64,000 nt of DNA from Enterocloster asparagiformis (GTDB taxonomy: Bacteria; Bacillota; Clostridia; Lachnospirales; Lachnospiraceae): assembly GCA_018380885.1 (NCBI GenBank), contig JAGZSY010000001.1, positions 124,001 to 188,000 of the forward strand, read 5' to 3'. Positions 36,893-57,295 of the stretch are shown here, in pieces. Position numbers and translations under genes: made by a program. Position 1 is the first letter of the stretch. Every line of letters starts with the position of its first letter. The notes under the pieces are model-generated. The model saw only the letters and a list, made by a program, of their open reading frames with translations. It was not told the origin of the DNA and did no database searches.

Positions 36893-37007
36893 GCATCTGT
36901 GACTCCTTCTCAGGCAGGTTATAAGGAGAATGGGATATGGAGAATAGCCCTTCATGCAAAAATATAGTATATTGTTAAAATGTGTTGATTTTTAAATTGA
37001 TGAACAC

Positions 37008-37083
37008 TTGACATGAAATAAAAAATTTGATATTATTATCTAAATAACGAATAACAATTTTAATAACAAAATTGTTAAACAAT
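37008..37083 (+). promoter_or_regulatory. Promoter and palindromic operator of the amidohydrolase-dpp operon
   Basis: TTGACA (37008-37013), 17-base spacer, TATTAT (37031-37036). The perfect palindrome ATTGTTAAACAAT lies at 37071-37083, and a second inverted arrangement AACAATTTT/AAAATTGTT at 37053-37061/37068-37076 overlaps it. The palindrome recurs at three other promoters in the island and fits a FadR-type GntR operator. It lies downstream of the predicted start site, where binding would repress. Confidence 0.75.
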
Positions 37084-37101
37084 ATTTTGAGGAGGAATGT
37101 T

Positions 37102-38469
37102 ATGCCGGATCAAATGAACCCAGTCATACGAACATGGTACGAGGATAACAAGCATGATGTAGCGGATTTAGCGCTGAAGGTGTGGGCAAATGCTGAATCG
37201 CTGCACGAGGAGTACTATGCATGTGAAGTCACCGCTGAATTTATGAAAAAACAGGGATTTTCCGTGGAGACGTTCCATTGCTTATATCCTGAACGACGGC
37301 CTAACACGGTAGTTGCTACATGGGGGAGCGGAAAGCCGGTCATTGGTTTTATTGGCGAATACGATGGATTGCCTGATCACGGACAGGAAGCGGTTCCTTA
37401 TCGTGCCCCGATTGAAGGCAAGTGTGGTCATGGATGTGGCCATAACCTGATGAACGCTTCCTGCGCATCCGCTACTGCGGCTCTGAAAGCGGCTATGGAA
37501 GCGGAAGGCCTTTCCGGTACAATTAAGTATTTTGCATGTCCGGCGGAAGAGGGTGGGGACGGTAAAATGCACATGGCTAAGGCGGGAGTGTTTGACGGAC
37601 TTGACTGCTGCTTCTCCTGGCATCCTCAGCCGGGGACCAACTTGCGTATTAAGGAAGTAATCATGAATACGGGAATTAGTCTGAAAGTGGAATTTTTTGG
37701 AAAAACTGCGCATGCCAGCGTTGCCCCCCAAGATGGCCGTTCTGCTCTGGATGCCTGCGAGCTGATGAATGTCGGGATCAACTACCTGCGGGAGCACATT
37801 CCTTCCACCAGCCGGGTTTTTTATAAATATTCCGCCGGAGGGGATAACGTTTTGCCGGAGTATGCAGCCTATGAATACTTTGTCCGTGCGGCAGATTTAA
37901 ACGCCGCCACCGATCTGTACCAGCGGGTGAGGAAATGTGCGGTTGGCGCTGCTACAATGACGGAAACCAAGTATAAGATTACAGTACCTTCTATCAGCCT
38001 CGCGCCTATTCAGATTGATGATTTCAATAATCTGCTGGCGAACGCGATGATGAAGCTGCCTAAGCTGACATACACAGAGGATGAAATAAAGTTTGCCCGG
38101 GAACTTTACCGCAATATTTCCGGCTGTGAACCCGCCAGTGATGAGGTTGCGATTCCATCCGGGTTTGAAGCCCCCACCGGCATTCATACCCATGTTCCCA
38201 ACACAACCGACGTTGGCTGGGTGGCGCGTAAGATTCCAACTGCCCGGCTTCAGGGATTGGCTATGATTGGAGGCACCAGCATGCATTCCTGGGCCTGCGT
38301 GGCCTGCACAGGCCATTCCATTGGCGTTAAGGGCGCTGTCTGGTCGGGAATGGCGCAGGCGCAGGGAGGGTACGATGTGCTGAAGAATCCTTCCGTTATT
38401 GAGGCTTGGTGGGAGGAGCTGCGCAGGCAGACAAAGGACGAGACAGAACCCGTTGTAATGGAAGTTTAA
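37102..38469 (+). CDS. AbgB-like M20 amidohydrolase, copy 1
   Basis: 455-residue metal-dependent amidase of peptidase family M20 (subgroup of AbgB, aminobenzoyl-glutamate and indole-acetyl-amino-acid hydrolases). Metal-ligand regions are GKCGHGCGHNLMN, PAEEGGDGK and SWHPQPGTN, with the C-terminal His in GGTSMHSWACVACTGHS. Start ATG 37102 follows GAGGAGG; the upstream TTG at 37072 lies inside the operator. Soluble, no signal peptide, so it acts on imported conjugates. It is followed 11 bases later by an equal-length paralogue. Confidence 0.88.
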   Translation: MPDQMNPVIRTWYEDNKHDVADLALKVWANAESLHEEYYACEVTAEFMKKQGFSVETFHCLYPERRPNTVVATWGSGKPVIGFIGEYDGLPDHGQEAVPYRAPIEGKCGHGCGHNLMNASCASATAALKAAMEAEGLSGTIKYFACPAEEGGDGKMHMAKAGVFDGLDCCFSWHPQPGTNLRIKEVIMNTGISLKVEFFGKTAHASVAPQDGRSALDACELMNVGINYLREHIPSTSRVFYKYSAGGDNVLPEYAAYEYFVRAADLNAATDLYQRVRKCAVGAATMTETKYKITVPSISLAPIQIDDFNNLLANAMMKLPKLTYTEDEIKFARELYRNISGCEPASDEVAIPSGFEAPTGIHTHVPNTTDVGWVARKIPTARLQGLAMIGGTSMHSWACVACTGHSIGVKGAVWSGMAQAQGGYDVLKNPSVIEAWWEELRRQTKDETEPVVMEV

Positions 38470-38480
38470 GGAGAGTATCA

Positions 38481-39848
38481 ATGAGCGATCAAGTAAATCC
38501 GATAATTAAGAAATGGTTTGATGAACACAGCGCAGAGACAGTGCAGCTGGCATTGGATATCTGGAATCATCCAGAACCCGCCCATGAGGAATATTATGCT
38601 TGCGAGATCACTGCGGAATTTATGAAAAAAAATGGCTTTCGCGTTGAGACGTTCCACTGTCTGGATCAAACGCGGAAGCCCAATACGGTTGTAGCGACAT
38701 GGGGCAGCGGAAGCCCGGTAATCGGTATTCTTGGCGAATATGATGCATTGCCTGGCCTGGGGCAGGAGTCGGTTCCCTACCGAGCTCCAATTAAAGGGAA
38801 ATGTGGTCATGGCTGTGGTCATAATCTGATGAATGCCGCGTGCTCATCTGCAGCTGTTGCGCTGAAGGAGGCAATAGAGGCCGGCGGACTTAAGGGGACA
38901 GTTAAATACTTTGCCTGTCCTGCAGAGGAGGGCGGAGATGGCAAAATGCACATGGCTAAAGCAGGTGTGTTCGACGGTTTAGATTGCTGCTTTGCCTGGC
39001 ATCCTCAGCCTGGTACCAATCTTCGTATTAAGGAGGTTATTTTGAATTCCATTATTGGTATGAAGGTGGAATTTTTCGGCAAGGATTCCCACGCAGCTGT
39101 TGCACCCGAGGAGGGACGCTCCGCGCTGGATGCCTGTGAAATCATGAATGTCGGTGTCAACTATCTGCGGGAGCATATGCCTGCCACCAGCCGTGTGCAC
39201 TACATATATACCAATGGTGGAGAGAGGACGAACATAGTTCCGAATTATGCTTCTCTGGCTTACACAATCAGAGCTGTGGATCTCAATTCGGTGAGAAGCC
39301 TCTACGAGAGAGTGAAAAAATGCGCGGAAGGTGCAGCTACTATGACGGAGACGGAATTTAAAATAACAGTTGAATCGGTCGGTCTGGCTCCCGCTCAGAT
39401 TGATGATTTCAATAATTTCTTTTATCGTTCCATGCAGAAACTGCCCAAGCTGTCCTACACAGAAGATGAGATTAAATTTGCAAGAGAGTTGTTCCGCAAT
39501 GTTACCGGGCGCGAACCTGCCAGCGATGAGGAAGCGATTCCGTCCGGTATCGAGGCGCCTACAGGAATCCATAAAAATGTTCCTAATTCCACAGATGTGG
39601 GATGGGTGGCCCGCAAGGTGCCAACCTCGCGTCTGATGGGGCTGGCCATGATTGGCGGGACCAGTATGCATTCCTGGGCCTGTGTGGCCTGCACCGGCCA
39701 TTCAATTGGCACAAAGGGGGCTTGCTACGTGGCTATGGCCATTGCCCAGGCTGCATTCGACGTTGCCTGTGACCCCTCTGTGATTCCACCTTGGTGGGAG
39801 GATCTCCGCGCCCAGACGAAAGATGAGAGTGAGCCCGTTTTTGATTGA
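38481..39848 (+). CDS. AbgB-like M20 amidohydrolase, copy 2
   Basis: 455-residue paralogue of the preceding gene, of identical length and with the same metal-ligand regions (GKCGHGCGHNLMN, PAEEGGDGK, AWHPQPGTN, GGTSMHSWACVACTGHS). The two differ mainly in the lid/dimerisation domain (residues about 195-320), for example STSRVFYKYSAGG against ATSRVHYIYTNGG. AbgA/AbgB-type enzymes can be heterodimers, so the pair may form one complex or two enzymes with different specificity. ATG 38481 follows AAGGAGAG; the longer frame to 38406 overlaps copy 1. Confidence 0.88.
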   Translation: MSDQVNPIIKKWFDEHSAETVQLALDIWNHPEPAHEEYYACEITAEFMKKNGFRVETFHCLDQTRKPNTVVATWGSGSPVIGILGEYDALPGLGQESVPYRAPIKGKCGHGCGHNLMNAACSSAAVALKEAIEAGGLKGTVKYFACPAEEGGDGKMHMAKAGVFDGLDCCFAWHPQPGTNLRIKEVILNSIIGMKVEFFGKDSHAAVAPEEGRSALDACEIMNVGVNYLREHMPATSRVHYIYTNGGERTNIVPNYASLAYTIRAVDLNSVRSLYERVKKCAEGAATMTETEFKITVESVGLAPAQIDDFNNFFYRSMQKLPKLSYTEDEIKFARELFRNVTGREPASDEEAIPSGIEAPTGIHKNVPNSTDVGWVARKVPTSRLMGLAMIGGTSMHSWACVACTGHSIGTKGACYVAMAIAQAAFDVACDPSVIPPWWEDLRAQTKDESEPVFD

Positions 39849-39887: not shown

Positions 39888-41522
39888 ATGAAAAAAAGTG
39901 TGTCCCTGTTACTCGCAGTCTGTATGACATTCAGTTTAGTGGCCTGCGCAAAGACAAATGACAGTCAGAAAAGTTCTAATTCCAGCTCTGATTCCGGTGG
40001 CACTGAAGCGTATGTTGATGTTGTAGGCAATCCGGCTCCCGGAGGCATTGCCACAACTACGGCAAAAGAAGAGTTTACATTTGGTATGCTTGGAGAGCCC
40101 ATGTCTTTGGACCCGCCTACTTCCCGTGATGCGACCACTCCGACCGGTTGGCTGTTCCATTCTCAGCTGTATGATACGCTGCTTCGTTATGATGCGCAGA
40201 CCCAGCAGTTCCACCCTGTTCTGGCCACCGAATGGGAGATCAACGATGATGTCACCGAGGTATTGTTTACTCTGCGTGAGGGCGTTAAGTACCACTGCGG
40301 TGAGACGATGACGGCTGATGATGTTGTCTGGTCCCTGACAAGAGCGCTTGAAGCTGGTTATACGGATGCTCTGAATGATGCCATTGATCATTTCGAGAAG
40401 GTGGACGAAACACACATTAAGGTTGTTTTGAAATATGCATATGTGCCGATTCTTCAGGTGCTGACTGTTCCATGCTGGGGTGTGGTCTGCCCCCATGATG
40501 TTCAGAAATGTGAGGCCAATGGCAGCGATTTTGGCAGAAATCCATGTGGGACTGGAGCTTACAAGTTTGCAACATGGGAGAGTGGAAAACAGCTTACCTT
40601 TGATGCATTTGAAGATTACTGGGAGGGGGTCCCGGCAATAAAGAAAGTTACCTCTACAATCCTTGGAGATGCCTCCGCTGGTGCGCTGGCTTTGGAGGAA
40701 GGCCTGATCGACTACTTCCCCAGTGTCGCCACATCAGATATTCAGCACCTGTCCACTCTGGACAACCTGCATGTTGAGATTTTGCCGGGAACCGCGATTG
40801 TTGCTATCTGTATGAATTCCACCGACGGCGTATTTTCCGATGTTCGTGTCCGCCAGGCTGTTTCATATGCTGTGAACCGTGAAGATATCCTGACGGGTGC
40901 CAAGAACGGCAACGGTTCGCTGGCATACTGTTATTGTGCGCCGATGTGTGTCGGCTATGATGCTGAGTTCCAGGCGAATGAGCAAAACATTGAGAAGGCA
41001 AAGCAGCTGCTGGCAGAAGCCGGTTATCCAGACGGACTGACGGTCACCTGCCAGCAGGATTCCAGTGCAACCTATATGCCTGTGGCGGAGGTGGTACAGG
41101 CCCAGCTGAAAGACATCGGCATTAATCTGGAGTTTGATAAAATGGAGCGAACTACCTGGATGGACGTTGTTTCGGTCAACAGACAATTTGATATCACAGT
41201 CCGCCAATCTACATATTCTATTTTCGATGCCGACTATATGCTGACCAGACGTCTGCATAGTAAGAATATTGGTGTGGGGGGTAATTATTCCGGTTACGCC
41301 AACCCTAAACTGGATGAAGTTCTGGACGCTGCTCGTACTGAGCCGGATGCCGTTAAGCGTCAGGCGTTGTACACAGAGGCTTACGCCATTGTCCGTGATG
41401 ACGCTCCGATGATACCACTACTGTATACTGCTAGTCCACAGATTACGAATGTGAATTTGAGAGGGATGATGGATGATGCCAGTTGGAGAGATCTGTGGAG
41501 CCGCCTCTATTTTATTCGCTGA
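39888..41522 (+). CDS. ABC transporter substrate-binding lipoprotein, family 5 (Dpp/Opp type)
   Basis: 544-residue extracellular receptor. A lipoprotein signal ends in LVACAK (Cys about residue 20), then a Ser/Asn-rich linker and the SBP_bac_5 domain, starting FTFGMLGEPMSLDPPTSRD. Family 5 receptors bind di/oligopeptides, nickel or other amides. Its place after two amidohydrolases suggests it captures their amide-linked substrate. A hairpin lies between it and the permease genes. Confidence 0.92.
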   Translation: MKKSVSLLLAVCMTFSLVACAKTNDSQKSSNSSSDSGGTEAYVDVVGNPAPGGIATTTAKEEFTFGMLGEPMSLDPPTSRDATTPTGWLFHSQLYDTLLRYDAQTQQFHPVLATEWEINDDVTEVLFTLREGVKYHCGETMTADDVVWSLTRALEAGYTDALNDAIDHFEKVDETHIKVVLKYAYVPILQVLTVPCWGVVCPHDVQKCEANGSDFGRNPCGTGAYKFATWESGKQLTFDAFEDYWEGVPAIKKVTSTILGDASAGALALEEGLIDYFPSVATSDIQHLSTLDNLHVEILPGTAIVAICMNSTDGVFSDVRVRQAVSYAVNREDILTGAKNGNGSLAYCYCAPMCVGYDAEFQANEQNIEKAKQLLAEAGYPDGLTVTCQQDSSATYMPVAEVVQAQLKDIGINLEFDKMERTTWMDVVSVNRQFDITVRQSTYSIFDADYMLTRRLHSKNIGVGGNYSGYANPKLDEVLDAARTEPDAVKRQALYTEAYAIVRDDAPMIPLLYTASPQITNVNLRGMMDDASWRDLWSRLYFIR

Positions 41523-41608: not shown

Positions 41609-42559
41609 ATGCTAAAATACGTGTTGAAACGAGTCCTTATGCTCATACCGGTCGTGTTTGGAATCTCGCTTATTATTTTCTTTATCATGAGCCTCACGCC
41701 GGGCGATCCGGCATTGGCGATGTTGGGAGATGATCCTTCTCCTGAGGTATATGAACTGCTTCGCAAGGAGCTGGGCTTGAATGATCCCATTATTGTCAGG
41801 TATTTCAAGTATATTCTGGGCGCGCTGCAAGGAGATCTGGGGACGTCCTATAAAAGCGGCCTGCCTGTGATCGATGAAATCAGGATACGTTTACCTTATA
41901 CGCTGCGCCTTGCGCTGATCAGTACGACGTTTGCTGTGATCGTAGGGATTCCAATTGGAATTTTGTCGGCGGTAAAGCAGTATTCACTGCTCGACACGAC
42001 TGTATTGGGAACTTCACTGATTCTGACTTCTTTGCCGGGCTTTTTCTTTGGTCTGATTTTAATTTTGATTTTTTCTGTTCATCTGCATTTACTGCCGATG
42101 ATGGGGATGGATTCTGTGAAAGCGCATATTTTGCCCTGCCTTGCGGCGTGTACCGGCACACTTGCTTCCATGATTCGTATGACACGCTCTACGATGCTGG
42201 AGGTTATCCGGCAGGATTATATTCGTACCGCCCGGGCTAAAGGTGTTCCGGAGAGAAAGATCATCTTTAAACATGCCCTGAAAAATTCCCTTCTCCCTGT
42301 TATAACAATTATTGGCCTCCATATGGGACTGGCTATGGGAGGGTCCATTGCAATTGAGCAGCTATTTTCAATAACAGGCATCGGACAGCTGATGATTACG
42401 GCAATTCGCCAGAAAGACACGCCCGTCGTAATGGCTTGCATTATGATGACGGCACTGATTGTGAGCGTTTCAAACTTACTGGTGGATATTCTATATTACT
42501 ATGTTGATCCAAGATTGAAAACTCAAGTTGCAGGAAACAGAAAGAGGGTGAGAGTATGA
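41609..42559 (+). CDS. ABC transporter permease, DppB type
   Basis: 316-residue inner-membrane subunit with six predicted helices, the N-terminal MLKYVLKRVLMLIPVVFGISL motif of DppB/OppB in outline, and the EAA loop YIRTARAKGVPERKIIFKHALKN shown here in part (ARAKGV). AGGGAGG precedes the ATG. It overlaps the next gene by 4 bases (ATGA). Confidence 0.93.
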   Translation: MLKYVLKRVLMLIPVVFGISLIIFFIMSLTPGDPALAMLGDDPSPEVYELLRKELGLNDPIIVRYFKYILGALQGDLGTSYKSGLPVIDEIRIRLPYTLRLALISTTFAVIVGIPIGILSAVKQYSLLDTTVLGTSLILTSLPGFFFGLILILIFSVHLHLLPMMGMDSVKAHILPCLAACTGTLASMIRMTRSTMLEVIRQDYIRTARAKGVPERKIIFKHALKNSLLPVITIIGLHMGLAMGGSIAIEQLFSITGIGQLMITAIRQKDTPVVMACIMMTALIVSVSNLLVDILYYYVDPRLKTQVAGNRKRVRV

Positions 42560-43452
42560 CAGCGGGGACAAAAACGTTGGTGGGGGAAGAAGGTATTTTG
42601 AAGAAGAAGGGCCAGCTACGGGTCATCTGGATGCGTTACTGCCGCAGCAGGCTGGCGGTTTTCGGTCTAATCATTTTTTCCGTTATGCTGCTGCTGGTAC
42701 TGTCCGCCGACCTGTATATGGATTATGATACAAATGCTTTGAAAATGAATATGAGCGAGCAGTATCTGGCTCCAAGTATGCGGCATCTGATGGGGACTGA
42801 TTCCATGGGAAGAGATTATTTTGCCCGCGTGATATATGGTGGCCGTATCTCGATGTTCGTCGGAGTGGCGACCGTTATTTTTGCACTGCTTGTCGGCGGC
42901 CTGATCGGCGCCGTAGCGGCTTACTATGGCGGTAAGCTGGAGAATATTCTGATGCGGATCATGGATGTTTTTCTGGCAATTCCACCGACTCTTCTGGCTC
43001 TGACAATCATTGCCACGGTTGGTTCGGGAATTTCCACCTTAGTCATTGCTATGGGCATTTCTCAAACTCCCCGTATGGCGCGTATTGTACGGTCGGCTGT
43101 TCTCGGAGTCAAGGGTTCGGATTATGTAGAAGCGGCCAGGGCATGCGGTACCAGCAATGCGCGTATTATTCTCCGCCATATTATTCCCAATGCTATGGGA
43201 CCGATTCTGGTTCAGGCAACTCAGACGGTAGCCAGATCCGTTCTGATTATCTCCAGCTTGAGTTTTATCGGTCTTGGTGTATCTGAACCTACCCCTGAGT
43301 GGGGGAGCATGCTGTCCACGGTAAAAACGCAGATGCGTTATTATCCGCATCTGGCGATTGCCCCCGGAATTGCGATGGGTCTTTCTGTTTTGTCACTGAC
43401 ACTGATTGGGGATGGACTTCGTGACGCTATGGACCCGCGCCTGCGAAATTAA
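42556..43452 (+). CDS. ABC transporter permease, DppC type
   Basis: 298-residue second permease subunit with an N-terminal OppC_N segment, the GTDSMGRDYFARVIYGGR motif and the EAA loop EAARACGTSNARIILRHI. It forms the heterodimeric channel with the DppB-type subunit and is translationally coupled to it. Confidence 0.93.
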   Translation: MTAGTKTLVGEEGILKKKGQLRVIWMRYCRSRLAVFGLIIFSVMLLLVLSADLYMDYDTNALKMNMSEQYLAPSMRHLMGTDSMGRDYFARVIYGGRISMFVGVATVIFALLVGGLIGAVAAYYGGKLENILMRIMDVFLAIPPTLLALTIIATVGSGISTLVIAMGISQTPRMARIVRSAVLGVKGSDYVEAARACGTSNARIILRHIIPNAMGPILVQATQTVARSVLIISSLSFIGLGVSEPTPEWGSMLSTVKTQMRYYPHLAIAPGIAMGLSVLSLTLIGDGLRDAMDPRLRN

Positions 43453-43465
43453 AGGAGGCTGTTAA

Positions 43466-44464
43466 ATGTCGAATCCATTGTTCAAAATAGAAGATTTACA
43501 TGTGATATATAAAACTGACACGGATACGATTTATGCGTTGAACGGTGTCAATCTTGCGCTGGAAAAAGGTGAAACAGTCGGACTGGTAGGCGAGACTGGC
43601 GCTGGCAAGAGTACGATTGCCCTCAGTACCATGAAAATACTGCCTCAAAAGGTAGGCTTTATTACGAAAGGGAGTATACGCTTTGACGGCAAGGAATTGA
43701 TGGAGGCATCAGAGGCGGACATGCGTATCATTCGGGGCAGTGATATTTCTATGATTTTTTCTGATCCAATGAGCGCGTTGAATCCGTTGTTGACTGTAGG
43801 GGATCAGATTGCCGAGGTCATTGAAATGCACGAGGTGGATTTCAGCCATGCTCAGATCGACAAAAAGGTCGACAGCATGATGGAATTAGTCGGCATTCCG
43901 GCCAAGAGGAAAAGCGAATATCCCCACCAGTTCTCAGGAGGTATGAAACAGAGAATCGTTATCGCCATTGCATTGGCCTGCAATCCCAGGCTCATCCTGG
44001 CGGATGAACCCACCACGGCGTTGGATGTAACGATTCAGGCACAGGTCCTGAAGATGATGAATGAGCTGAAGGATAAGTTTGGAACTGCGATGCTGCTGAT
44101 CACCCATGACTTGGGTATTGTCGCACAGATGTGTGACTCTGTAGGGATCATCTATGCCGGTGAGATCATCGAATATGGCACTGCCGAAGATATCTACGAG
44201 AGTGATAGACACCACCCCTATACGATTGGCCTGTTTGGGGCAATTCCCGATATCAAGAGCCAGGCTCGCCGTCTAACTCCAATCGACGGTATGATGCCCG
44301 ATCCCGCGAAGCTGCCTAAGGGCTGCAGCTTTGCGGACAGGTGCAACAGGTGCATGGATATTTGCAGGGCCGAGAAGCCGCCTGTATGTAAGTTTGGCAG
44401 CCACAGCATCAAATGCCATCTCTTCTGTGCTGAGGCGACTGATGAGGGAAGGGAGATTGAATGA
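43466..44464 (+). CDS. ABC transporter ATPase, DppD type
   Basis: 332-residue ATP-binding subunit with Walker A GETGAGKST, signature FSGGMKQR, Walker B LILADEPTTALD and a C-terminal oligopeptide-transporter domain with the usual Cys-rich GCSFADRCNRCMDIC. Overlaps the second ATPase gene (ATGATG at 44461 across the TGA). Confidence 0.94.
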   Translation: MSNPLFKIEDLHVIYKTDTDTIYALNGVNLALEKGETVGLVGETGAGKSTIALSTMKILPQKVGFITKGSIRFDGKELMEASEADMRIIRGSDISMIFSDPMSALNPLLTVGDQIAEVIEMHEVDFSHAQIDKKVDSMMELVGIPAKRKSEYPHQFSGGMKQRIVIAIALACNPRLILADEPTTALDVTIQAQVLKMMNELKDKFGTAMLLITHDLGIVAQMCDSVGIIYAGEIIEYGTAEDIYESDRHHPYTIGLFGAIPDIKSQARRLTPIDGMMPDPAKLPKGCSFADRCNRCMDICRAEKPPVCKFGSHSIKCHLFCAEATDEGREIE

Positions 44465-45536: not shown

Positions 45537-45576
45537 TTGACATTTAAAAAAACATGTAATATAATTGTTATACAAT
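45537..45576 (+). promoter_or_regulatory. Consensus promoter with operator over the -10, before the GntR regulator
   Basis: TTGACA (45537-45542), 17-base spacer, TATAAT (45560-45565), a perfect sigma-A promoter. The palindrome ATTGTTATACAAT (45564-45576) overlaps the -10. Binding here would block RNA polymerase, so negative autoregulation is expected. Confidence 0.85.
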
Positions 45577-46433: not shown

Positions 46434-46513
46434 TTAATAATACAAAAATGATTTACGAGTGTTCGGTAATTGCTGCTTTGTATGATGGCATAGAAATAGC
46501 GCAGTGGAGAGGA

Positions 46514-46525: not shown

Positions 46526-46599
46526 ATAAGAGAAGCTTCGAATGGACATCAACAATTCACGTTACCTTACCCCAAATATTAAGAAAAGAGGTGAGCAAC

Positions 46600-47085: not shown

Positions 47086-47118
47086 GCTTGATGGTATGAG
47101 GTATAGAAGGAGGATAAA

Positions 47119-48600: not shown

Positions 48601-48642
48601 ACTGCTGAATAACTTTAAAAATGTGAAAGGAGTCATCTCAAA

Positions 48643-49744: not shown

Positions 49745-49790
49745 TTGACTTTTATGATTACATATATTACAATTTAAATTGTTCAACAAT
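49745..49790 (+). promoter_or_regulatory. Promoter and operator of the carboxylate-degradation operon
   Basis: TTGACT (49745-49750), 17-base spacer, TACAAT (49768-49773). The perfect palindrome ATTGTTCAACAAT (49778-49790) begins 5 bases after the -10 and covers the expected start site. Confidence 0.82.
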
Positions 49791-50743: not shown

Positions 50744-51958
50744 ATGGCGGGAAAAACGATAGCGGAAAAGATATTAGGGAGTCATGCAGGGAGGGATGTT
50801 CACGCAGATGAGATCGCACTGTGCAATGTAGATTTTATCATGCTGCATGATGCGAATAGTCCCCTTGCAATCCGCGCATTTGAAAGCATGGGCGGAACGC
50901 AGGTATTTGACCCGGATAAGGTAGCGGTTATTTTTGATCACTGTACCCCACCATCTAATGAAAAGCTTTCTAATATTCATGCTTATCTTCGCAGGTTTGC
51001 GCGAGGACAAGGTGTCCGATTTTACGAAGGCGGACGGGGGGTATGCCATCAGCTGATGGTTGAAAGCGGAATTTTACATCCAGGTGACCTAGTCGTTGGA
51101 AGCGATTCACATACCTGTACATACGGCGCATTGGGGGTGCTTTCTACCGGATTGGGGGCAACTGACATTGCAGCCGCTATGTTTACCGGACAGCTATGGT
51201 TTCGCGTACCTAAGACAATCCGTATTCAGCTTAATGGCAGCCTCTCGCCTATGTGCAGCGCCAAGGATATTATACTTTATGTAATCGGTACCCTTGGCGC
51301 TGACGGAGGGAATTATTTCAGCTTTGAATTTTATGGAGACTATTTAGAAAAATGCTCACAATCGCAGCGGCTGACAATTGCCAATATGCTTGTGGAGATG
51401 GGGGCAAAGTGCGGATTTCTATGTCATGATGGACTTGGTATTACGGCAGATGAGGACGCTGTTTACGAAAAAAATATAGAGATCAATCTTGACGGAATCG
51501 AGCCTGTCATTGCCAAGCCACACACGGTTGACAATATCTGCTTTGTAGGAGAGGCTGAGGGCATTCACATCAATCAGGCAGTACTCGGCAGTTGTACGAA
51601 TGGTCGGCTGGAAGATCTGGAAGCGGCAGCGCGGATATTGAAAGGAAAGCATATTCATTCAGATATCAGATTGTTGGTCCTTCCTGCATCTGAGACAGTG
51701 CTTCGGCAGGCGGCAAATACAGGCGTACTCGTAGACTTGATCGATGCAGGGGCAACTATTTGTACTCCAGGCTGCGGTATCTGTGTTGGAACGCTTGGCG
51801 GTGTTCCCGCCGATGGCGAAGTTGTTATTTCAAGCACAAACCGAAATTTTAAAGGGAGAATGGGAAATAACAAGGCATCAATTTACCTGGCATCTCCTGA
51901 GACAGTAGCCGCCTCGGCGCTTATGGGCGAGATTACAGATCCGCGGAAACTACTTTGA
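50744..51958 (+). CDS. Aconitase-superfamily large subunit, LeuC/DmdA type, copy 1
   Basis: 404-residue iron-sulfur hydro-lyase subunit. [4Fe-4S] ligands are Cys in GSCTNGRLED and the CxxC in TPGCGICVG; the substrate-loop motifs GVCHQLMVESG and VVGSDSHTCTYGALG are intact. Length fits the isopropylmalate isomerase/dimethylmalate dehydratase/homoaconitase group rather than full aconitase. Pairs with the small subunit 27 bases downstream. It would move or remove a hydroxyl on a 2-hydroxy di/tricarboxylate. The exact substrate is unknown. Confidence 0.9.
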   Translation: MAGKTIAEKILGSHAGRDVHADEIALCNVDFIMLHDANSPLAIRAFESMGGTQVFDPDKVAVIFDHCTPPSNEKLSNIHAYLRRFARGQGVRFYEGGRGVCHQLMVESGILHPGDLVVGSDSHTCTYGALGVLSTGLGATDIAAAMFTGQLWFRVPKTIRIQLNGSLSPMCSAKDIILYVIGTLGADGGNYFSFEFYGDYLEKCSQSQRLTIANMLVEMGAKCGFLCHDGLGITADEDAVYEKNIEINLDGIEPVIAKPHTVDNICFVGEAEGIHINQAVLGSCTNGRLEDLEAAARILKGKHIHSDIRLLVLPASETVLRQAANTGVLVDLIDAGATICTPGCGICVGTLGGVPADGEVVISSTNRNFKGRMGNNKASIYLASPETVAASALMGEITDPRKLL

Positions 51959-51985: not shown

Positions 51986-52498
51986 ATGCTGATATCATCA
52001 AAAGCAATTGTCTACGGGGATGATATTAATACGGATTTAATCATTGCCGGAAAGTATACAAAAACCCTTGATACAAATGATCTTGTAGCGCATGTTATGG
52101 AAGATTTGGACCCGTTGTTCAGAGACAAATGTGCGGGCGGCGCATTTGTTGTGGCAGGTGAATACTTTGGCTGTGGTTCTTCTCGGGAGCAGGCCCCGGT
52201 TGCGCTGCTGGAAGCTGGTGTACAGTGTGTTGTGGCAAAAAGCTTTTCACGTATTTTTTACCGCAACGCTATCAATATCGGCCTTCCGATCGTAGAATGC
52301 GACACAGGCTTTATTGCTGACGGAGATATTCTTTCTTACGAATTGGGCTCAAGCCACCTTTTCGATATCACAAATGGTCAATCCTGTAAGATTATGCCTT
52401 TGGAGCCGTTGATGGTGAAAATACTGAACTGCGGCGGTATGGTGGCGTTCATGAAGAAATATGGAAGTTTTAAAGCTTTATGCGAAGAGGAAAATTAA
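51986..52498 (+). CDS. Aconitase-superfamily small subunit, LeuD/DmdB type, copy 1
   Basis: 170-residue swivel-domain subunit with YGDDINTDLIIAGKY, the active-site loop FGCGSSREQAPVALLEAG and FSRIFYRNAINIGLP. It forms the active enzyme with the preceding LeuC-type subunit. GAGAGGTGG lies upstream of the ATG. Confidence 0.92.
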   Translation: MLISSKAIVYGDDINTDLIIAGKYTKTLDTNDLVAHVMEDLDPLFRDKCAGGAFVVAGEYFGCGSSREQAPVALLEAGVQCVVAKSFSRIFYRNAINIGLPIVECDTGFIADGDILSYELGSSHLFDITNGQSCKIMPLEPLMVKILNCGGMVAFMKKYGSFKALCEEEN

Positions 52499-52500: not shown

Positions 52501-53775
52501 ATGGGGAAAACATTTGCAGAAAAGGCGCTGGGCAAGGCTGCAGGCTATGCGGTCAGCGAAGGGGATGTCGTGACGGTATATCCTGATTTCTGTTTGACTC
52601 ACGAAAACACAGCTTCAGTATACGCAACGTTTAGCACGCTCGGAATCGAGCGGGTTTACGATGCCGGCCGAATTGTGGTGGTCTTTGACCATACGGTACC
52701 CCCTTCCACTGCGGCGTACGCCAACAGCCACATGCAAACACGCAAATTTGTTGCGGAACAGGGAATCGAACATTTTTATGATTTGAATAAAAAGGGCGGT
52801 ATATGTCATCAGATTATGTGCCAGGAGGGGTTTGCCGCACCAGGTGAGGTGATCGTTGGTTCGGACAGCCATACCTGTACTTATGGCGCCATGGGAGCTT
52901 TTTCCACAGGGATTGGAAGAAGCGAAATGGCAGCCACATGGGCGACGGGAAAACTGTGGTTGAGAGTGCCGGAATCAATGAAAATTACAGTGGAAGGTAG
53001 ATTTCTAGCAGGCGTTACCGCGAAAGATCTGATTTTGACGATTGCCGGTGACGTAACCGCTTCAGGCGCCGATTATCTATCCATCGAATATCACGGAGAG
53101 GGTATACAGAATATGAGTATCGCCGAGCGCATGACCCTTTGTAATATGGGAGTAGAGCTTGGGGCAAAAAACAGCGTGTGTGAGCCTGACGAGAAGGTTT
53201 TTGAGCAGTTAAAGGGAAAAGCAAAAAAGGATGGATGGGAACCACTCTGGGCGGATTGTGATGCCCATTATGTAAAGGAATTACATTATAACCTGGAGGA
53301 TATTGTGCCGGTGGCAGCTATGCCCGGCAGGGTCGACAACCGGGAATACATTGAAAACGTGGCGGGATATCCCATTGATCAGGTGTTTATAGGCACCTGT
53401 ACCAATGGAAGATTGGAAGATTTACGAATTGCAGCAGAGATACTGAGGGGGAAGAACGTACAGGTTCGCACCATAGTACAGCCCGCTTCGGTGGAGATAT
53501 ATCGCAAGGCGATCGCTGAAGGTATCATTACTGAGCTGCTGGATGCCGGCTGCGTGGTTTCACATCCCGGCTGCGGCCCTTGCGTAGGGGTGTGCGGAGG
53601 CATTTTGGGGGACGGAGAGGTGTGCGTGTCCACGGCAAATCGCAATTTTACCGGGCGGATGGGAAGTAAAACGTCAAAGATTATATTAGCCAGCCCTGCT
53701 ACAGCTGCAGCCAGCGCGTTAGAAGGCAAGATTGCCGATCCGAGGAAATACTTCGTGTCAAAGGAGGGCGTGTAA
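52501..53775 (+). CDS. Aconitase-superfamily large subunit, LeuC/DmdA type, copy 2
   Basis: 424-residue paralogue with intact GICHQIMCQEGFA, VVGSDSHTCTYGAMG in family form (IVGSDSHTCTYGAMG here), GTCTNGRLED and HPGCGPCVGVCGG. It is clearly diverged from copy 1 (CGP against CGI around the cluster, plus a longer middle segment with KKDGWEPLWADCDA). Start ATG 52501 is 2 bases after the copy 1 small-subunit stop, with GAAGAGGA upstream. Two different hydro-lyases in one operon suggest two successive hydration steps or two substrates. Confidence 0.9.
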   Translation: MGKTFAEKALGKAAGYAVSEGDVVTVYPDFCLTHENTASVYATFSTLGIERVYDAGRIVVVFDHTVPPSTAAYANSHMQTRKFVAEQGIEHFYDLNKKGGICHQIMCQEGFAAPGEVIVGSDSHTCTYGAMGAFSTGIGRSEMAATWATGKLWLRVPESMKITVEGRFLAGVTAKDLILTIAGDVTASGADYLSIEYHGEGIQNMSIAERMTLCNMGVELGAKNSVCEPDEKVFEQLKGKAKKDGWEPLWADCDAHYVKELHYNLEDIVPVAAMPGRVDNREYIENVAGYPIDQVFIGTCTNGRLEDLRIAAEILRGKNVQVRTIVQPASVEIYRKAIAEGIITELLDAGCVVSHPGCGPCVGVCGGILGDGEVCVSTANRNFTGRMGSKTSKIILASPATAAASALEGKIADPRKYFVSKEGV

Positions 53776-53776
53776 T

Positions 53777-54274
53777 TTGTCAATCAAAGGGAAAGCGCTG
53801 GTATATGGAGATGATATCAGCACAGATCTGATCTATCCCGGCCGTTATACATACATTTTGCTGACCGAGGAACAGATGGCGGAGCATGCGCTTGAGGATT
53901 TAGACCCGGATTTTAAGGACTGCGAGGTCAGAGGCCGCATTTTGGTCGCCGGCAAAAATTTTGGTTGTGGATCTGCAAGAGAACAGGCGGTGAAATGCCT
54001 TAAGCAAAAGGGAATTACAGCGATCATCGCTAAAAGCATTTCCCGCATCTATTACCGGAACTGCATCAATGAAGGCCTTTTGCCCATTGTATGCCCTGCC
54101 GCCGTCGAAGCCATACAAACCGGGGATACGATTGATATTGATGTCGAAGAGGGACTGCTGACAATCGGTCGACGGCAATACCCGTTTCCAAAGTATCCCG
54201 CTTTTGTTTTAGAAATTATAAACTGCGGTGGCCTTATTGCCAGCATACGGGAATCACATTTGAGGAGGAGTTGA
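53777..54274 (+). CDS. Aconitase-superfamily small subunit, LeuD/DmdB type, copy 2
   Basis: 165-residue swivel subunit with VYGDDISTDLIYPGRYTY, the loop FGCGSAREQAVKCLKQKG and SISRIYYRNCINEG. The likely start is TTG 53777, 9 bases after AAGGAGG; the frame starting 53732 overlaps the previous gene. Pairs with large subunit copy 2. Confidence 0.9.
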   Translation: MSIKGKALVYGDDISTDLIYPGRYTYILLTEEQMAEHALEDLDPDFKDCEVRGRILVAGKNFGCGSAREQAVKCLKQKGITAIIAKSISRIYYRNCINEGLLPIVCPAAVEAIQTGDTIDIDVEEGLLTIGRRQYPFPKYPAFVLEIINCGGLIASIRESHLRRS

Positions 54275-54275: not shown

Positions 54276-55442
54276 ATGCGTCAAATTGATGTTGAAAGTG
54301 CAAAAGAGAAATTTGGAAAGCTTCTGGAGTCAGAGGCGGCTCGGATTGAACGCATGAGAAATACCGGGCCTGCGCCGGATTTCAGTGTTGTGAGTCCAAT
54401 TATTGTAGGGGTGATTCCTGGGGATGGGATTGGTCCCATCATTATGGAGCAGACGCTGAGAGTACTCCGCGAGCTGATCGGAGACAGGATTGAAAAAGGG
54501 ACTGTCGACCTGCGCATAATCAAAGGCCTCTCTATTGATGAACGCGTGGAGAAAATGCAGACGCTGCCGCTGGAAGCGCTGAATGCCCTTAAGGAGTGCC
54601 ATGTTATTTTAAAAGGGCCCATGACGACTCCGCGTCCGGGCGATCCTTGGCCTTACCTGCCCAGCGCAGTTGCAGGAATTCGCAGGGAATTGGAATTAAA
54701 TGTAAGCTTGCGTCCGGTTGTCAATCCTGTCAAAAAGATTGATTGGGTTATGTTCCGCGAGAATATCGAAGGCGCTTATATCTGGGGGAGCAAAGGGATT
54801 CAGGTGGACGATGATTTGGCCGTGGATTTTGTAGTAGAGACTAAATTACAGAGCCTGCATGTAGCGCGTATGGCGTTTGAATATGCCAGAAAAAATGGAA
54901 GACATCATGTGACAGCTGTGACAAAGGTCAACATTGTCAAGCTGACGGACGGCAATCTCCTTGCCGCGTGCCGCGAAATCGCGAAAGAGTATCCTGAAAT
55001 TGTGTATGATGAAAGGCTGGTTGACATTACGGCGTCCAAGCTTACCGATCCCGAGTTCACCAGCGATTTAGAAGTATTGGTGCTGCCCAATCTCTACGGC
55101 GACATTATTTCAGATATTGCGGCGGAGATTTCCGGCGGGGTGAGTACAGCAGGAAGCGCCAATATAGGTTCTCGGTATGCGCTGTTTGAGGCTATCCATG
55201 GAACGGCTCCATTTCTCACTAAAAATAATCGGGGAGAGTACGCAGATCCCAGCAGCCTGCTGAAAGCAATGGGGATGATGCTGGCGCATATTGGCTTTAC
55301 GGAAGAAGCCCGCCGTCTGGAAAAGGCCATGGAAATTTGCGGTTATACGGAGCGTAAAGTGACTGTTACCAGTTTTCCGGAGGATGCCAGCACCAGAGAA
55401 TACACGGATTATATTCTGGAAACACTCGCTCAGATTGATTGA
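54276..55442 (+). CDS. Isopropylmalate/isocitrate dehydrogenase-family enzyme
   Basis: 388-residue NAD(P)-dependent beta-decarboxylating dehydrogenase. Motifs: GVIPGDGIGPIIMEQ, the substrate-Arg region RRELELNVSLRPV and MFRENIEGAY, catalytic Lys in TAVTKVNIVKLTDGN, metal Asp in LPNLYGDIISDIAAE and the cofactor loop EAIHGTAPFL. A 35-residue N-terminal extension precedes the core. Placed straight after the hydro-lyases, it should oxidise and decarboxylate their 3-substituted malate-type product to a 2-oxo acid, as LeuB follows LeuCD. The sequence does not settle the substrate. Confidence 0.9.
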   Translation: MRQIDVESAKEKFGKLLESEAARIERMRNTGPAPDFSVVSPIIVGVIPGDGIGPIIMEQTLRVLRELIGDRIEKGTVDLRIIKGLSIDERVEKMQTLPLEALNALKECHVILKGPMTTPRPGDPWPYLPSAVAGIRRELELNVSLRPVVNPVKKIDWVMFRENIEGAYIWGSKGIQVDDDLAVDFVVETKLQSLHVARMAFEYARKNGRHHVTAVTKVNIVKLTDGNLLAACREIAKEYPEIVYDERLVDITASKLTDPEFTSDLEVLVLPNLYGDIISDIAAEISGGVSTAGSANIGSRYALFEAIHGTAPFLTKNNRGEYADPSSLLKAMGMMLAHIGFTEEARRLEKAMEICGYTERKVTVTSFPEDASTREYTDYILETLAQID

Positions 55443-55475
55443 TATAGGTTCAGACTAGAAAGGCGGTATGATTTG

Positions 55476-56459
55476 ATGAAGACAATTGCATTAACAGGCC
55501 CATATAATCCGGCTACGCGCAGTGCAATCCATCAGGCAGTCCCGGAAGGATATCGTTTGATTGATGTCCCGGACTATGAGCATTATGAAGATTTAAAGAC
55601 TGCGGATTATATGATTATCCGTACTCTGAAGTTAAAAAAAGAGGATCTGGCAGGCACCAATGTACGTTTTGTTCAGAAGTGGGGGGCCGGATACGACATG
55701 ATAGACGTAAAAGGCATCAGTGAGTTGGATATTCCTGTAGCAATTTGTAATGGAGTCAATGCGACGCCCGTCGCGGAGATGGCCGTTTTGCATATGCTGG
55801 CTCTTTATCGGAATTTCATTGCAATTAATTCCAAGCTTAGGAACCGGATTTGGGCAAAAGATGAGTATTCGTCTAAATCCTATATAATTAACGGAAAAAC
55901 GGTTGGGATTGTGGGCTTGGGAAATATAGGCGGCAAGGTAGCTAAAATTGTAAGCGGCTTTGGAGCGAAGGTAGTATACTCTGATATACGGGAAGGCGCG
56001 CTTGCTCTTCAGCCAGATATTGAGAGGCTTCCGCTGGAAGAGCTTCTGGCTGTGTCCGATATTGTCACGGTGCATGTTCCCCTTACGGATCAGACCCGCA
56101 ATATGTTTGACGCGAAGAAATTCTCAATGATGAAACCGACGGCAGTGTTCATCAATACAGCCCGTGGAGAGGTTATCAACGAGGCAGACCTTGCCGACGC
56201 GCTTCGCAGCGGGAAAATTGCAGGAGCCGGTCTTGACGCTCTGTCAAAAGAACCGCCGGAGGAAGATTGGCCCTTTTACGCAATGGAGAATGTTGTTTAC
56301 ACACCTCACACAGGCGGAAATACTGCGGATAACGATATTAACATGATTAAATGCTGTATGGATAATATCAGCAGGATTGACAAAGGTGAGCCAATCAGCG
56401 CCCGCAATCTTATTAATAACCATTTATTGAAAAATAAAAAAAGGGAGTGTGCCATATGA
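55476..56459 (+). CDS. D-isomer-specific 2-hydroxyacid dehydrogenase
   Basis: 327-residue NAD-dependent oxidoreductase with Rossmann motif VGIVGLGNIGGKVAK, the catalytic Arg in NTARGEVINEADL, catalytic Glu in GAGLDALSKEPP and His in YTPHTGGNTADN. It probably reduces the 2-oxo acid formed upstream, or oxidises an incoming D-hydroxy acid. ATG 55476 is preferred over TTG 55473, with AAGGCGG about 10 bases upstream. Confidence 0.9.
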   Translation: MKTIALTGPYNPATRSAIHQAVPEGYRLIDVPDYEHYEDLKTADYMIIRTLKLKKEDLAGTNVRFVQKWGAGYDMIDVKGISELDIPVAICNGVNATPVAEMAVLHMLALYRNFIAINSKLRNRIWAKDEYSSKSYIINGKTVGIVGLGNIGGKVAKIVSGFGAKVVYSDIREGALALQPDIERLPLEELLAVSDIVTVHVPLTDQTRNMFDAKKFSMMKPTAVFINTARGEVINEADLADALRSGKIAGAGLDALSKEPPEEDWPFYAMENVVYTPHTGGNTADNDINMIKCCMDNISRIDKGEPISARNLINNHLLKNKKRECAI

Positions 56460-57148
56460 TGAAAGATAATCCACTGCTGCTTGATAAACATATTGTCGAA
56501 CGTGCTGAGGCACTCGGTTCTGCTTTGCTGGCTGACGGGATGAAAGGGATGGGGATTGAGATGGACGGCTGTATGTGTTCAGACGTCATGCCAATCACAC
56601 CGTCTATGAAGATGGCGGGAACAGCGCTCACTGTAGAGACAGATGACGGTGATAATTTTCCGATCCATGTGGCTACATATGCAGGAGGCGAGGGCTATGT
56701 GATGGTTATAGACGGGAAAAACTGCTCATATCGTCCGTATTTTGGCGAATTGATTGCAAGTGCCGCTAAGGCGGTGGGTTTTAGGGGAATGGTATGTGAC
56801 GGACTGGTGCGCGACCGGGACGGCTGCAGTGAGCTTGGACTTCCGGTCTTTGCAAGAGGCTTTTTACAGCGGGGGCCTGTGAAAAAGAATCCGGGCAAGA
56901 TCAATGAACCCATTCGCTGTGCCGGAATTATGGTAAATCCCGGTGACTTGGTGGTTGGGGATTGTGATGGAGTAACCGTAGTGCCGAGAGAGCTTGTGGA
57001 AGAGATAATAAAGAAAGCGGAGGATAAATTAGCTTACGAGCAGAAGCGTATTAAAACGATAACCGAGTATAACGAAGCAAAAAAGAATGGGAATCCGCTG
57101 CCGGAGCTTGCTCCGAAATGGGTTCTGGATATGCTCAACGCACAGTAG
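56456..57148 (+). CDS. RraA-like/HMG aldolase-family protein
   Basis: 230-residue protein of the RraA/HMG-CHA aldolase fold. The metal-binding active-site segment is GMVCDGLVRDRDGC, with the conserved Arg and Asp used by class II pyruvate aldolases (4-hydroxy-4-methyl-2-oxoglutarate aldolase) and GGEGYVMVIDG for the loop. In a catabolic operon an aldolase or oxaloacetate-decarboxylase role is more likely than RNase E inhibition. It overlaps the upstream gene by ATGATGA and ends the operon. Confidence 0.85.
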   Translation: MMKDNPLLLDKHIVERAEALGSALLADGMKGMGIEMDGCMCSDVMPITPSMKMAGTALTVETDDGDNFPIHVATYAGGEGYVMVIDGKNCSYRPYFGELIASAAKAVGFRGMVCDGLVRDRDGCSELGLPVFARGFLQRGPVKKNPGKINEPIRCAGIMVNPGDLVVGDCDGVTVVPRELVEEIIKKAEDKLAYEQKRIKTITEYNEAKKNGNPLPELAPKWVLDMLNAQ

Positions 57149-57161
57149 AGACTGACTTAAT

Positions 57162-57222
57162 AAAAGGGAATTGCTGTATTGTCTAATGATTATTCAGAAG
57201 ACGTATATCAGTTCCCTTTGTT
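57162..57222 (+). terminator. Terminator at the end of the carboxylate operon
   Basis: AAAGGGAA pairs with TTCCCTTT across a long loop, with a short T-rich tail. It marks the right edge of the AT-richer island. Confidence 0.65.
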
Positions 57223-57295
57223 ATTGTGAAATGCTTCCCGGAAAAATATAAATCTATGAGAGCTGAGGTGACAGAAAACGCAGCCCGCGCAGACA

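What the first reader, a model, noticed from the sequence alone, without database searches (positions are those of the whole stretch)
36994..57230. A GntR-controlled regulon for uptake and breakdown of an unidentified, probably amide-conjugated, carboxylate
Seen: two AbgB-like amidohydrolases, a Dpp-type ABC importer, a GntR/FCD regulator, a TctBAC transporter, a DUF6282 hydrolase-like protein, two full LeuCD/DmdAB-type hydro-lyases, a LeuB/Icd-like dehydrogenase, a D-2-hydroxyacid dehydrogenase and an RraA/HMG-aldolase-like protein. Known: LeuCD-LeuB chemistry turns a 2-alkyl-2-hydroxy acid into a 2-oxo acid by isomerisation and oxidative decarboxylation; HMG aldolases release pyruvate from 4-hydroxy-2-oxo acids. 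Inferred: an amide conjugate is imported and hydrolysed, or the free acid enters by Tct, and the acid is isomerised, decarboxylated, reduced and cleaved to central metabolites. I know of no described pathway with two hydro-lyase pairs in this arrangement.
Basis: partly seen in the sequence, partly recalled or inferred. Interest (0 to 1): 0.9.

Follow-up and report, generated by a model that had tools for sequence, protein, structure and literature searches.

The report
Foreign 20-kb island digesting an organic acid
This stretch is a block of about 20,000 bases that looks acquired from elsewhere, with one switch protein apparently controlling import and breakdown of an unusual, perhaps lignin-type, organic acid; it suggests a job for an enzyme family (DUF6282) that has none yet.

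Summary
The named genes are present, and the block is sharply bounded: GC3 is 0.43-0.58 in its 19 genes and 0.77-0.86 in the nine other window genes measured, so it looks horizontally acquired. The "GntR regulon" gains support: ATTGTnnnACAAT occurs exactly four times in the window (0.09 expected), once before each of the four inferred transcription units, covering both the M20/Dpp and the Tct/catabolic halves. The site also precedes DUF6282 in four of nine other loci examined (a fifth with one mismatch).

The hydro-lyases are not LeuCD. HacA1-B1-A2-B2 recurs as a block in two other genomes. Of 13 DUF6282 loci read at 41% identity or more, ten carry a 4-oxalomesaconate-hydratase-like (GalB) or fumarase-like enzyme and nine of these also RraA. 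On a Thermus plasmid this trio lies among aromatic ring-cleavage genes, DUF6282 in the slot of the PDC hydrolase.

Best reading: DUF6282 opens a lactone (perhaps 2-pyrone-4,6-dicarboxylate), a homoaconitase-like pair hydrates the product, RraA cleaves it to pyruvate plus oxaloacetate. Iso_dh, D2HDH and the second hydro-lyase stay unexplained; amide conjugates remain a weak inference. No substrate was tested.

The parts
37071..37083 (+). GntR operator candidate 1 (ATTGTTAAACAAT), 3' of promoter TTGACA-17-TATTAT at 37008-37036; upstream of M20a
   Evidence: (exact match; 4 found, 0.09 expected)
37102..38469 (+). M20a, AbgB/M20D-type amidohydrolase
   Evidence: (TIGR01891 183.8 bits, cut-off 153.75)
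38481..39848 (+). M20b, tandem paralogue of M20a (72% identical)
39888..41522 (+). DppA/NikA-type substrate-binding lipoprotein
   Evidence: below equivalog cut-offs
41609..45414 (+). DppB, DppC, DppD, DppF (permeases and ATPases of the importer)
   Evidence: named by eye
45564..45576 (+). GntR operator candidate 2 (ATTGTTATACAAT), touching the -10 of TTGACA-17-TATAAT (45537-45565); upstream of gntR itself
45633..46280 (+). GntR/FCD regulator, 46-49% identical to the GntR genes beside DUF6282 in L091 and L107
46421..46433 (+). GntR operator candidate 3 (ATTGTATAACAAT), next to promoter TTGACA-17-TAAATT at 46391-46419; upstream of tctBAC
46504..49734 (+). TctB, TctA, TctC tripartite tricarboxylate transporter (TctB start uncertain, perhaps 46600)
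   Evidence: TctC by Pfam; TctA, TctB by eye
49778..49790 (+). GntR operator candidate 4 (ATTGTTCAACAAT), 3' of promoter TTGACT-17-TACAAT at 49745-49773; 35 bp before DUF6282
49826..50713 (+). DUF6282 protein; amidohydrolase-superfamily TIM barrel; candidate lactonase (LigI-like role)
50744..51958 (+). HacA1, large subunit of hydro-lyase pair 1
51986..52498 (+). HacB1, small subunit; loop GKYTKT, resembling homoaconitase YLRT
52501..53775 (+). HacA2, large subunit of pair 2 (44% identical to HacA1)
53777..54274 (+). HacB2, small subunit; loop GRYTYIL
54276..55442 (+). Iso_dh, isocitrate/homoisocitrate-dehydrogenase-like, about 40 aa N-terminal extension
55473..56459 (+). D-2-hydroxyacid dehydrogenase
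56456..57148 (+). RraA-like class II pyruvate aldolase (CHA/HMG aldolase type); start 56456 or 56459

Best explanation
A horizontally acquired catabolic island controlled by one GntR/FCD regulator, which probably also controls itself. The acid enters by TctBAC. DUF6282, an amidohydrolase-superfamily enzyme, opens a lactone ring, most likely 2-pyrone-4,6-dicarboxylate (PDC) or a close analogue, to 4-oxalomesaconate (OMA). [quoted passage not shown] RraA splits CHA into pyruvate and oxaloacetate and may decarboxylate the latter. The second hydro-lyase with Iso_dh probably runs a parallel isocitrate/homoisocitrate-type isomerisation and oxidative decarboxylation; D2HDH is a redox step or electron sink. 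M20a/b and Dpp feed in a peptide- or amide-linked precursor under the same switch. Shown by sequence: gene content, island composition, operators and their footprint, the conserved blocks, the Thermus context. Inferred: every substrate and every catalytic step.
Against: No sequence match of DUF6282 to LigI appeared, and the structural matches are to the superfamily at large. Three DUF6282 loci at 41-45% (L094, L095, L096) have no GalB-like gene, and six at 29-37% have mixed contexts. L117 and L118 carry the double hydro-lyase with no DUF6282 beside it. HacA1 relatives share contig lengths with Iso_dh relatives (18 values between lists of 120) far more than with DUF6282 relatives (2, one being the window), so HacAB1 may serve Iso_dh rather than OMA. 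No OMA tautomerase and no ring-cleaving oxygenase is in the island, so PDC would have to be imported. The window's RraA is below the CHA-aldolase equivalog cut-off (142 of 179 bits), and other pathways use RraA-family aldolases (recalled).
Confidence: 0.45

Rival explanations
1. A tricarboxylate (citrate, trans-aconitate, isocitrate or homocitrate type) fermentation island: Tct imports the acid, HacAB1 acts as aconitase or homoaconitase, Iso_dh makes the 2-oxo acid, D2HDH reduces it to a D-2-hydroxy acid as electron sink, and RraA works mainly as oxaloacetate decarboxylase.
For: HacA1 and Iso_dh relatives share 18 contig lengths between lists of 120, shifted-control mean 0.7, largest 3. Of 80 Iso_dh loci, 40 hold an aconitase-superfamily large-subunit match; those read are 645-665-aa aconitases in L001, L002, L004, L005 and L007. 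Iso_dh keeps Ser130, Arg136 and Arg146, which I align from memory with isocitrate-binding residues of E. coli IDH.
Against: DUF6282 then has no role, although it is first in the operon and has its own operator; RraA is most similar (58-59%) to those of DUF6282-GalB clusters; two hydro-lyase pairs are not needed.
Confidence: 0.2
2. Degradation of a hydroxycitrate-type lactone: DUF6282 opens the lactone, HacAB isomerises the dihydroxy tricarboxylate, Iso_dh forms 4-hydroxy-2-oxoglutarate, RraA yields pyruvate plus glyoxylate, D2HDH reduces glyoxylate.
For: Puts DUF6282, one hydro-lyase pair, Iso_dh, RraA and D2HDH in one line. D2HDH scores with a glyoxylate reductase model, though far below cut-off (176 of 455 bits).
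Against: Does not explain the GalB- and fumarase-type relatives, the aromatic context in Thermus or the second hydro-lyase pair. The chemistry is my own reasoning; no sequence evidence names this substrate.
Confidence: 0.1
3. One reading: an amide conjugate is imported by Dpp, cut by M20, and the freed acid is isomerised, decarboxylated, reduced and cleaved.
For: M20/Dpp and the catabolic operon share the operator and the foreign composition.
Against: No window-like M20/Dpp was matched beside DUF6282 or the double hydro-lyase elsewhere; the order of steps is not supported by the conserved cores.
Confidence: 0.1
4. Two or three unrelated operons brought together in one island, with the shared operator reflecting common GntR control rather than one pathway.
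For: The HacA1-Iso_dh pair, the double hydro-lyase block, the DUF6282-RraA core and M20 relatives each occur without the others.
Against: Iso_dh, the hydro-lyases, DUF6282 and RraA lie in one tight operon (gaps of 30 bp or less), and the four units carry the same exact operator.
Confidence: 0.1

Closest known systems
Lower protocatechuate 4,5-cleavage / gallate pathway (LigI, LigU/GalD, LigJ/GalB, LigK/GalC)
   Same: Proposed hydrolysis, hydration, then aldol cleavage to pyruvate and oxaloacetate; an RraA-type aldolase; in relatives a GalB-like hydratase; in Thermus aromatic upper-pathway genes are adjacent.
   Different: No GalB, LigJ, tautomerase or dioxygenase in the island; DUF6282 instead of LigI; two LeuCD-type pairs, Iso_dh, D2HDH and Tct/Dpp importers added.
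DUF6282-GalB-RraA clusters of Clostridia (L091 G156, L107 and L108 G784, L102 G510, L103 G688, L093 Enterocloster asparagiformis)
   Same: DUF6282 53-64% in all six; RraA 55-59% in L091, L103 and L107 (30-40% in L093, L102 and L108); GntR plus ATTGTnnnACAAT in L102, L107 and L108, with one mismatch in L091.
   Different: PIG-L hydratase instead of two LeuCD pairs; TRAP-TAXI-type transporter genes by eye in all but L108 (Tct); no Iso_dh, D2HDH, M20 or Dpp matched beside them apart from a distant ABC ATPase in L102.
Double hydro-lyase clusters L117 (G425) and L118 (G512)
   Same: Same four-gene order HacA1-HacB1-HacA2-HacB2 (49-65%); L117 with Tct, RraA and a dehydrogenase, L118 with D2HDH.
   Different: No DUF6282 or GntR beside them and no Iso_dh relative in either genome at 1e-60; L118 has HpcH/HpaI and PEP-mutase/isocitrate-lyase family lyases, L117 a DUF1932 dehydrogenase and a PrpR-like regulator.
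Nicotinate fermentation (enamidase, DmdAB, dimethylmalate lyase) of Eubacterium barkeri (recalled)
   Same: An amidohydrolase-superfamily enzyme plus a LeuCD-type hydratase plus a C-C lyase releasing pyruvate.
   Different: No mutase, methylitaconate isomerase or dimethylmalate lyase in the island; a different aldolase family.

Membership tests
Leucine-biosynthesis LeuCD | Large subunit above the LEU2 equivalog cut-off (TIGR02083, 610.65 bits) | tested here: not met
   HacA1 448.0, HacA2 436.5 bits; a LeuC beside leuD- and leuB-like genes (L111) scores 776.2; apart in the quick tree
Aconitase/LeuC superfamily hydro-lyase | Subfamily models and the cysteines of the [4Fe-4S] cluster | tested here: met
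   NF001614 519 and 531 bits, cut-off 385; C284, C344, C347 invariant in 19 HacA1-type rows; HacA2 has the CTNG and CGPC motifs (by eye)
Homoaconitase | Equivalog cut-offs (NF040615 550; NF040604 and NF040625 230 bits) | tested here: not met
   HacA1 429.9, HacA2 448.2; HacB1 143.8 and 172.2, HacB2 140.9 and 142.3 bits
PDC hydrolase LigI | Amidohydrolase-superfamily fold | tested here: met
PDC hydrolase LigI | Homology to LigI itself | tested here: inconclusive
   No PDB sequence match named LigI with the profile; LigI not among the 50 structural matches listed
PDC hydrolase LigI | Hydrolyses 2-pyrone-4,6-dicarboxylate to 4-oxalomesaconate | not testable with these tools
   needs an enzyme assay
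Protocatechuate/gallate lower pathway | GalB or LigJ-type OMA hydratase and OMA tautomerase genes | tested here: not met
   none seen among the island's ORFs (family searches)
CHA/HMG aldolase (LigK, GalC) | RraA-like fold with catalytic Arg and metal-binding Asp (Arg-123, Asp-124) | tested here: met
   PF03737 133.6 bits; aligned to 3noj, both residues conserved
CHA/HMG aldolase (LigK, GalC) | Equivalog cut-offs | tested here: not met
   NF006731 142.1 of 179; TIGR02798 128.4 of 304.5
NAD-dependent isocitrate dehydrogenase | Equivalog cut-offs | tested here: not met
   best isocitrate dehydrogenase model NF006673 234.7 of 509 bits
GntR/FCD regulon | FCD regulator plus a shared palindrome at the target promoters | tested here: met
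   PF07729 and PF00392; 4 exact sites, 0 of 100 shuffles with 4 or more
GntR/FCD regulon | The regulator binds those sites | not testable with these tools
   needs a gel shift; the footprint in GntR-bearing loci is indirect
AbgB/M20D amidohydrolase | TIGR01891 cut-off | tested here: met
   183.8 and 227.9 of 153.75 bits

The most novel reading that the evidence does not exclude
DUF6282 (close clade) is a previously unassigned lactonase family acting on PDC-type pyrones, and in this lineage homoaconitase-like LeuCD paralogues have replaced the PIG-L hydratase, so anaerobic Clostridia ferment an aromatic-ring-cleavage product (PDC/4-oxalomesaconate) that so far belongs to aerobic lignin and gallate degraders, with a second hydro-lyase/Iso_dh branch handling the isomeric acid.
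Probability: 0.3. Interest if true: 0.75.

Novelty: new variant of a known kind. Interest (0 to 1): 0.6.

Why it matters
If right, it gives a testable function to DUF6282 (no paper of the searched library holds the term), a new role for LeuCD-type hydro-lyases (the named relatives are called 3-isopropylmalate dehydratase), and a fermentative route for PDC-like acids that would link aerobic aromatic breakdown to anaerobic communities. It also shows how annotation can hide such pathways: alternative hydratases (PIG-L, fumarase-like, LeuCD-like) sit around one hydrolase-aldolase core. The operator makes the regulon boundaries and the inducer directly testable.

Tried and rejected
Rejected: ordinary leucine LeuCD; chance assembly of genes. 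Scans of IMG/VR contigs for DUF6282 and for Iso_dh found no relative. No contig carrying DUF6282, both hydro-lyase pairs, Iso_dh and RraA together was found outside the window. HacA1 searched in 295 genomes of the order of G001 gave 6 genomes at 1e-110, 46-48% identical: L111 is a LeuC above cut-off and L114 is 92% identical to it; the other four belong to another hydro-lyase block. LigI did not appear among the listed structural matches, which excludes nothing. Considered and given low weight: beta-citrylglutamate or another amide of a tricarboxylate as the Dpp/M20 substrate (no evidence). Near DUF6282 of L097 (33%) a PepD-like M20 peptidase is present by eye; it did not match M20a at 1e-5.

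Literature, listings only unless said: DUF6282, 0 papers; PDC with anaerobic, gut and fermentation terms, 55 papers by term count, 12 listed, none about anaerobic PDC breakdown in title or start of abstract; isopropylmalate dehydratase, RraA family, Tct, CHA, OMA and Clostridia, 2 papers, neither about this in title or start of abstract; trans-aconitate, rumen, fermentation, tricarballylate, 29 papers, 10 listed, none used; further searches. Passages were read in PMC12314914, PMC5065237 and PMC3764938 ('aromatic', 'dioxygenase' and 'benzoate' do not occur in its main text). PMC10815724, which names Thermus oshimai and protocatechuate, was not read.


Full report
What is there. The window carries on its + strand, from 37.1 to 57.15 kb, two M20 amidohydrolases (72% identical to each other), a Dpp/Nik-type importer, a GntR/FCD regulator, TctB-TctA-TctC, DUF6282, two complete LeuCD-type pairs (called HacA1-B1 and HacA2-B2 here), an isocitrate/isopropylmalate-dehydrogenase-family protein, a D-2-hydroxyacid dehydrogenase and an RraA-like aldolase. 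From DUF6282 to RraA the gaps are 30 bp or less or the genes overlap.

An island. Third-position GC is 0.425-0.580 in the 19 genes of the block and 0.769-0.857 in the nine other window genes measured: xdhA, xdhB, xdhC and pbuX on the left, a lipoprotein, a HAD phosphatase and an AraC-type response regulator on the right, and eno and pheT further left. The change is abrupt at both ends and includes the M20/Dpp half. I did not look for integrases or repeats at the edges; the only tRNA found in the window is at 27.8 kb.

One regulon. Comparing intergenic stretches with those of relatives gave the palindrome ATTGTnnnACAAT. The window holds four exact copies, at 37071, 45564, 46421 and 49778, against 0.09 expected, and 0 of 100 shuffles had four. 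With one mismatch allowed there are six against 1.5 expected. Each exact copy lies at or just 3' of a promoter match of 10 to 12 of 12 letters, upstream of M20a, gntR, tctB and DUF6282; in the 13.3 kb scanned there are 37 promoter matches (21 expected), seven of them at 10 or more. Elsewhere, of nine DUF6282 upstream stretches examined, four have an exact copy 29-54 bp before the gene (L102, L107, L108, L119), one has it with one mismatch 29 bp before (L091), and four do not (L092, L093, L104, which have a LysR-type gene by eye, and Thermus L121, which has a GntR). The exact copies are matched by 0 to 2 of 500 shuffles; the L091 copy alone is not significant (34 of 500). L107 and L119 each have a second exact copy before gntR. 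L103 starts inside DUF6282 and could not be examined. Two unrelated loci of the 118 searched also hold a copy (L015, L063). Binding is inferred.

The hydro-lyases. Neither large subunit reaches the LEU2 cut-off (448 and 436 against 610.65 bits), while a LeuC next to leuD- and leuB-like genes in L111 scores 776. In a quick tree of 30 rows HacA1 and HacA2 fall in separate clades, each apart from that LeuC; 7 of 27 inner branches are weak and the tool warned of long branches meeting around the aconitase outgroup and L111/L114. The block HacA1-HacB1-HacA2-HacB2 recurs in the same order in the two genomes of 391 (class of G001) that have HacA1 at 1e-125 or better; both belong to one small order with six genomes held. 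Identity is 58-65% for the large and 49-65% for the small subunits. L117 has the block with TctCBA, a DUF1932 dehydrogenase, RraA (38%) and a PrpR-like regulator; L118 with TRAP-TAXI (by eye), D2HDH (37%), an HpcH/HpaI lyase and a PEP-mutase/isocitrate-lyase family protein. HacB1 has the loop GKYTKT in 3 of 3 copies, against YLRT in the homoaconitase subunit 2pkp and YLVYT in the isopropylmalate isomerase subunit 3vba; HacB2 has GRYTY or GVHTY. That this loop sets specificity is recalled; no title listed is on the methanogen homoaconitase itself.

Its neighbours. I read 13 neighbourhoods with 41% identity or more. Ten have a hydratase candidate next to DUF6282: PIG-L/GalB-like in L091, L093, L102, L103, L107, L108, L119 and L121, class I fumarase-like alpha and beta in L092 and L104 (two near-identical clusters). 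Nine of the ten also have RraA; L119 ends at the record border, and no RraA is annotated in the first 9 kb of that circular record. The other three, L094, L095 and L096 (41-45%), have no GalB-like gene by eye; L095 has an RraA (38%). Six loci at 29-37% are mixed (L097, L098, L099, L124, L125, L126); in one of them, L099, a YbhJ-like hydro-lyase stands next to DUF6282. The PIG-L of L091 matches 4-oxalomesaconate hydratase 5cgz over the full length (E 8e-48) and those of L108, L121 and L122 at 43-67%; that of L119 is annotated PIG-L and matches at 55%; L093, L102, L103 and L107 are assigned by their N-terminal sequence by eye.

The Thermus clue. On pTHEOS01 of Thermus oshimai JL-2 the order is extradiol dioxygenase, GntR, DUF6282, PIG-L, CHA aldolase, DUF1932 dehydrogenase, with a 4-hydroxybenzoate 3-monooxygenase and a ring-hydroxylating dioxygenase alongside. 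The dioxygenase is above the catechol 2,3-dioxygenase cut-off and the aldolase above NF006731; the monooxygenase is above the subfamily but below the equivalog cut-off. In the protocatechuate 4,5 pathway the OMA steps are preceded by PDC hydrolase, LigI (enzyme list in PMC12314914, passages only). DUF6282 occupies that slot. In an Agrobacterium tannase cluster, where gallate cleavage would give OMA directly, PIG-L, CHA aldolase and OMA tautomerase are present and no DUF6282 is annotated in the 18.7 kb shown. Which acid the Thermus dioxygenase cleaves is not known, and catechol itself is possible.

How it most likely works. DUF6282 opens a lactone; the product is hydrated; RraA cleaves. In the window neither GalB nor fumarase is present in the island, so one of the LeuCD-type pairs is the natural hydratase, and OMA is formally 4-oxo-homoaconitate, which fits a homoaconitase-like enzyme. 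The window's RraA is 58-59% identical to those of L091 and L107 and keeps Arg-123 and Asp-124 of 3noj; Glu-199 falls beside a one-residue gap. It is below the CHA-aldolase cut-off.

What does not fit neatly. HacA1 relatives and Iso_dh relatives share 18 contig lengths between two lists of 120 (17 of them of 6 kb or more; shifted control mean 0.7, largest 3), but the HacA1 and DUF6282 lists share only 2, one being the window, and the DUF6282 and Iso_dh lists none. Contig length is an indirect fingerprint, and the DUF6282 list holds only relatives at 61% or more. Iso_dh relatives at 1e-60 are absent from 8 of 9 genomes with DUF6282 or double hydro-lyase clusters. So HacAB1 plus Iso_dh may be a module of its own for an isocitrate- or homoisocitrate-type acid. 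Of 80 Iso_dh loci, 40 hold an aconitase-superfamily large-subunit match. Iso_dh relatives at 55-57% sit with subsets of 650-aa aconitases, YbhJ-like hydratases, a PrpF/OMA-tautomerase-family protein and RraA in L002, L003, L004, L006 and L007, again mixing OMA-type and isocitrate-type genes. I give the PDC/OMA reading 0.45 and the tricarboxylate rival 0.2.

Amides. M20/Dpp shares operator and composition with the rest, so it probably belongs to the regulon. But M20 relatives in nine genomes with DUF6282 or double hydro-lyase clusters are only 35-44% identical and present in 5 of 9 at 1e-60. I read four of these places: beside M20 are a LysR-type gene (three of four) and two-part transporters by eye, no Dpp match beyond distant ABC ATPases and no operator. 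In G054 and G368 they lie about 11 and 13 kb from the DUF6282 gene, beyond other genes.

Verdict. A real, coherent and probably transferred regulon; the hydro-lyase arrangement is not unique; a plausible new function for DUF6282 and a new role for LeuCD-type enzymes, both untested.

Noticed in passing
L109, L110, L112, L113 (about 0-4.2 kb): Another hydro-lyase block in genomes of the order of G001, large-small-large subunits by eye, beside a CobW-like GTPase and a PfkB-like kinase (by eye, in three of the four); the two large subunits tested are not canonical LeuC (450 and 458 bits of 610.65).
   Followed up: partly
L002, L003, L004, L006, L007: Clusters of Iso_dh with PrpF/OMA-tautomerase-family protein, YbhJ-type hydratases, a 650-aa aconitase, RraA and LysR (each locus has a subset) in Peptoniphilus, Epulopiscium, Enterocloster and others; perhaps a second unassigned tricarboxylate pathway.
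   Followed up: partly
L092, L104, L108, L117, L121, L122: A DUF1932 (6-phosphogluconate-dehydrogenase-like) dehydrogenase recurs beside GalB-like, fumarase-like or double hydro-lyase plus RraA genes; its substrate is unknown.
   Followed up: partly
L123 (Bradyrhizobium japonicum plasmid p1S06B) 7998-11822: Aconitase-family large subunit, small protein, PEP-mutase-family lyase and isocitrate/isopropylmalate dehydrogenase in a row, near a homoserine-lactone synthase and a P450.
   Followed up: no
window 31373-36766: Xanthine dehydrogenase genes (XdhA, XdhB, a third subunit) and an NCS2/xanthine permease directly left of the island, with high GC3.
   Followed up: no
window 46514-46525: A run of 12 G just after the GTG of the mechanical TctB start, so the true TctB start is probably further down, near 46600.
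   Followed up: partly
window 13158-17012 and 28228-30153: Two large proteins with c-di-GMP diguanylate cyclase/phosphodiesterase matches.
   Followed up: no
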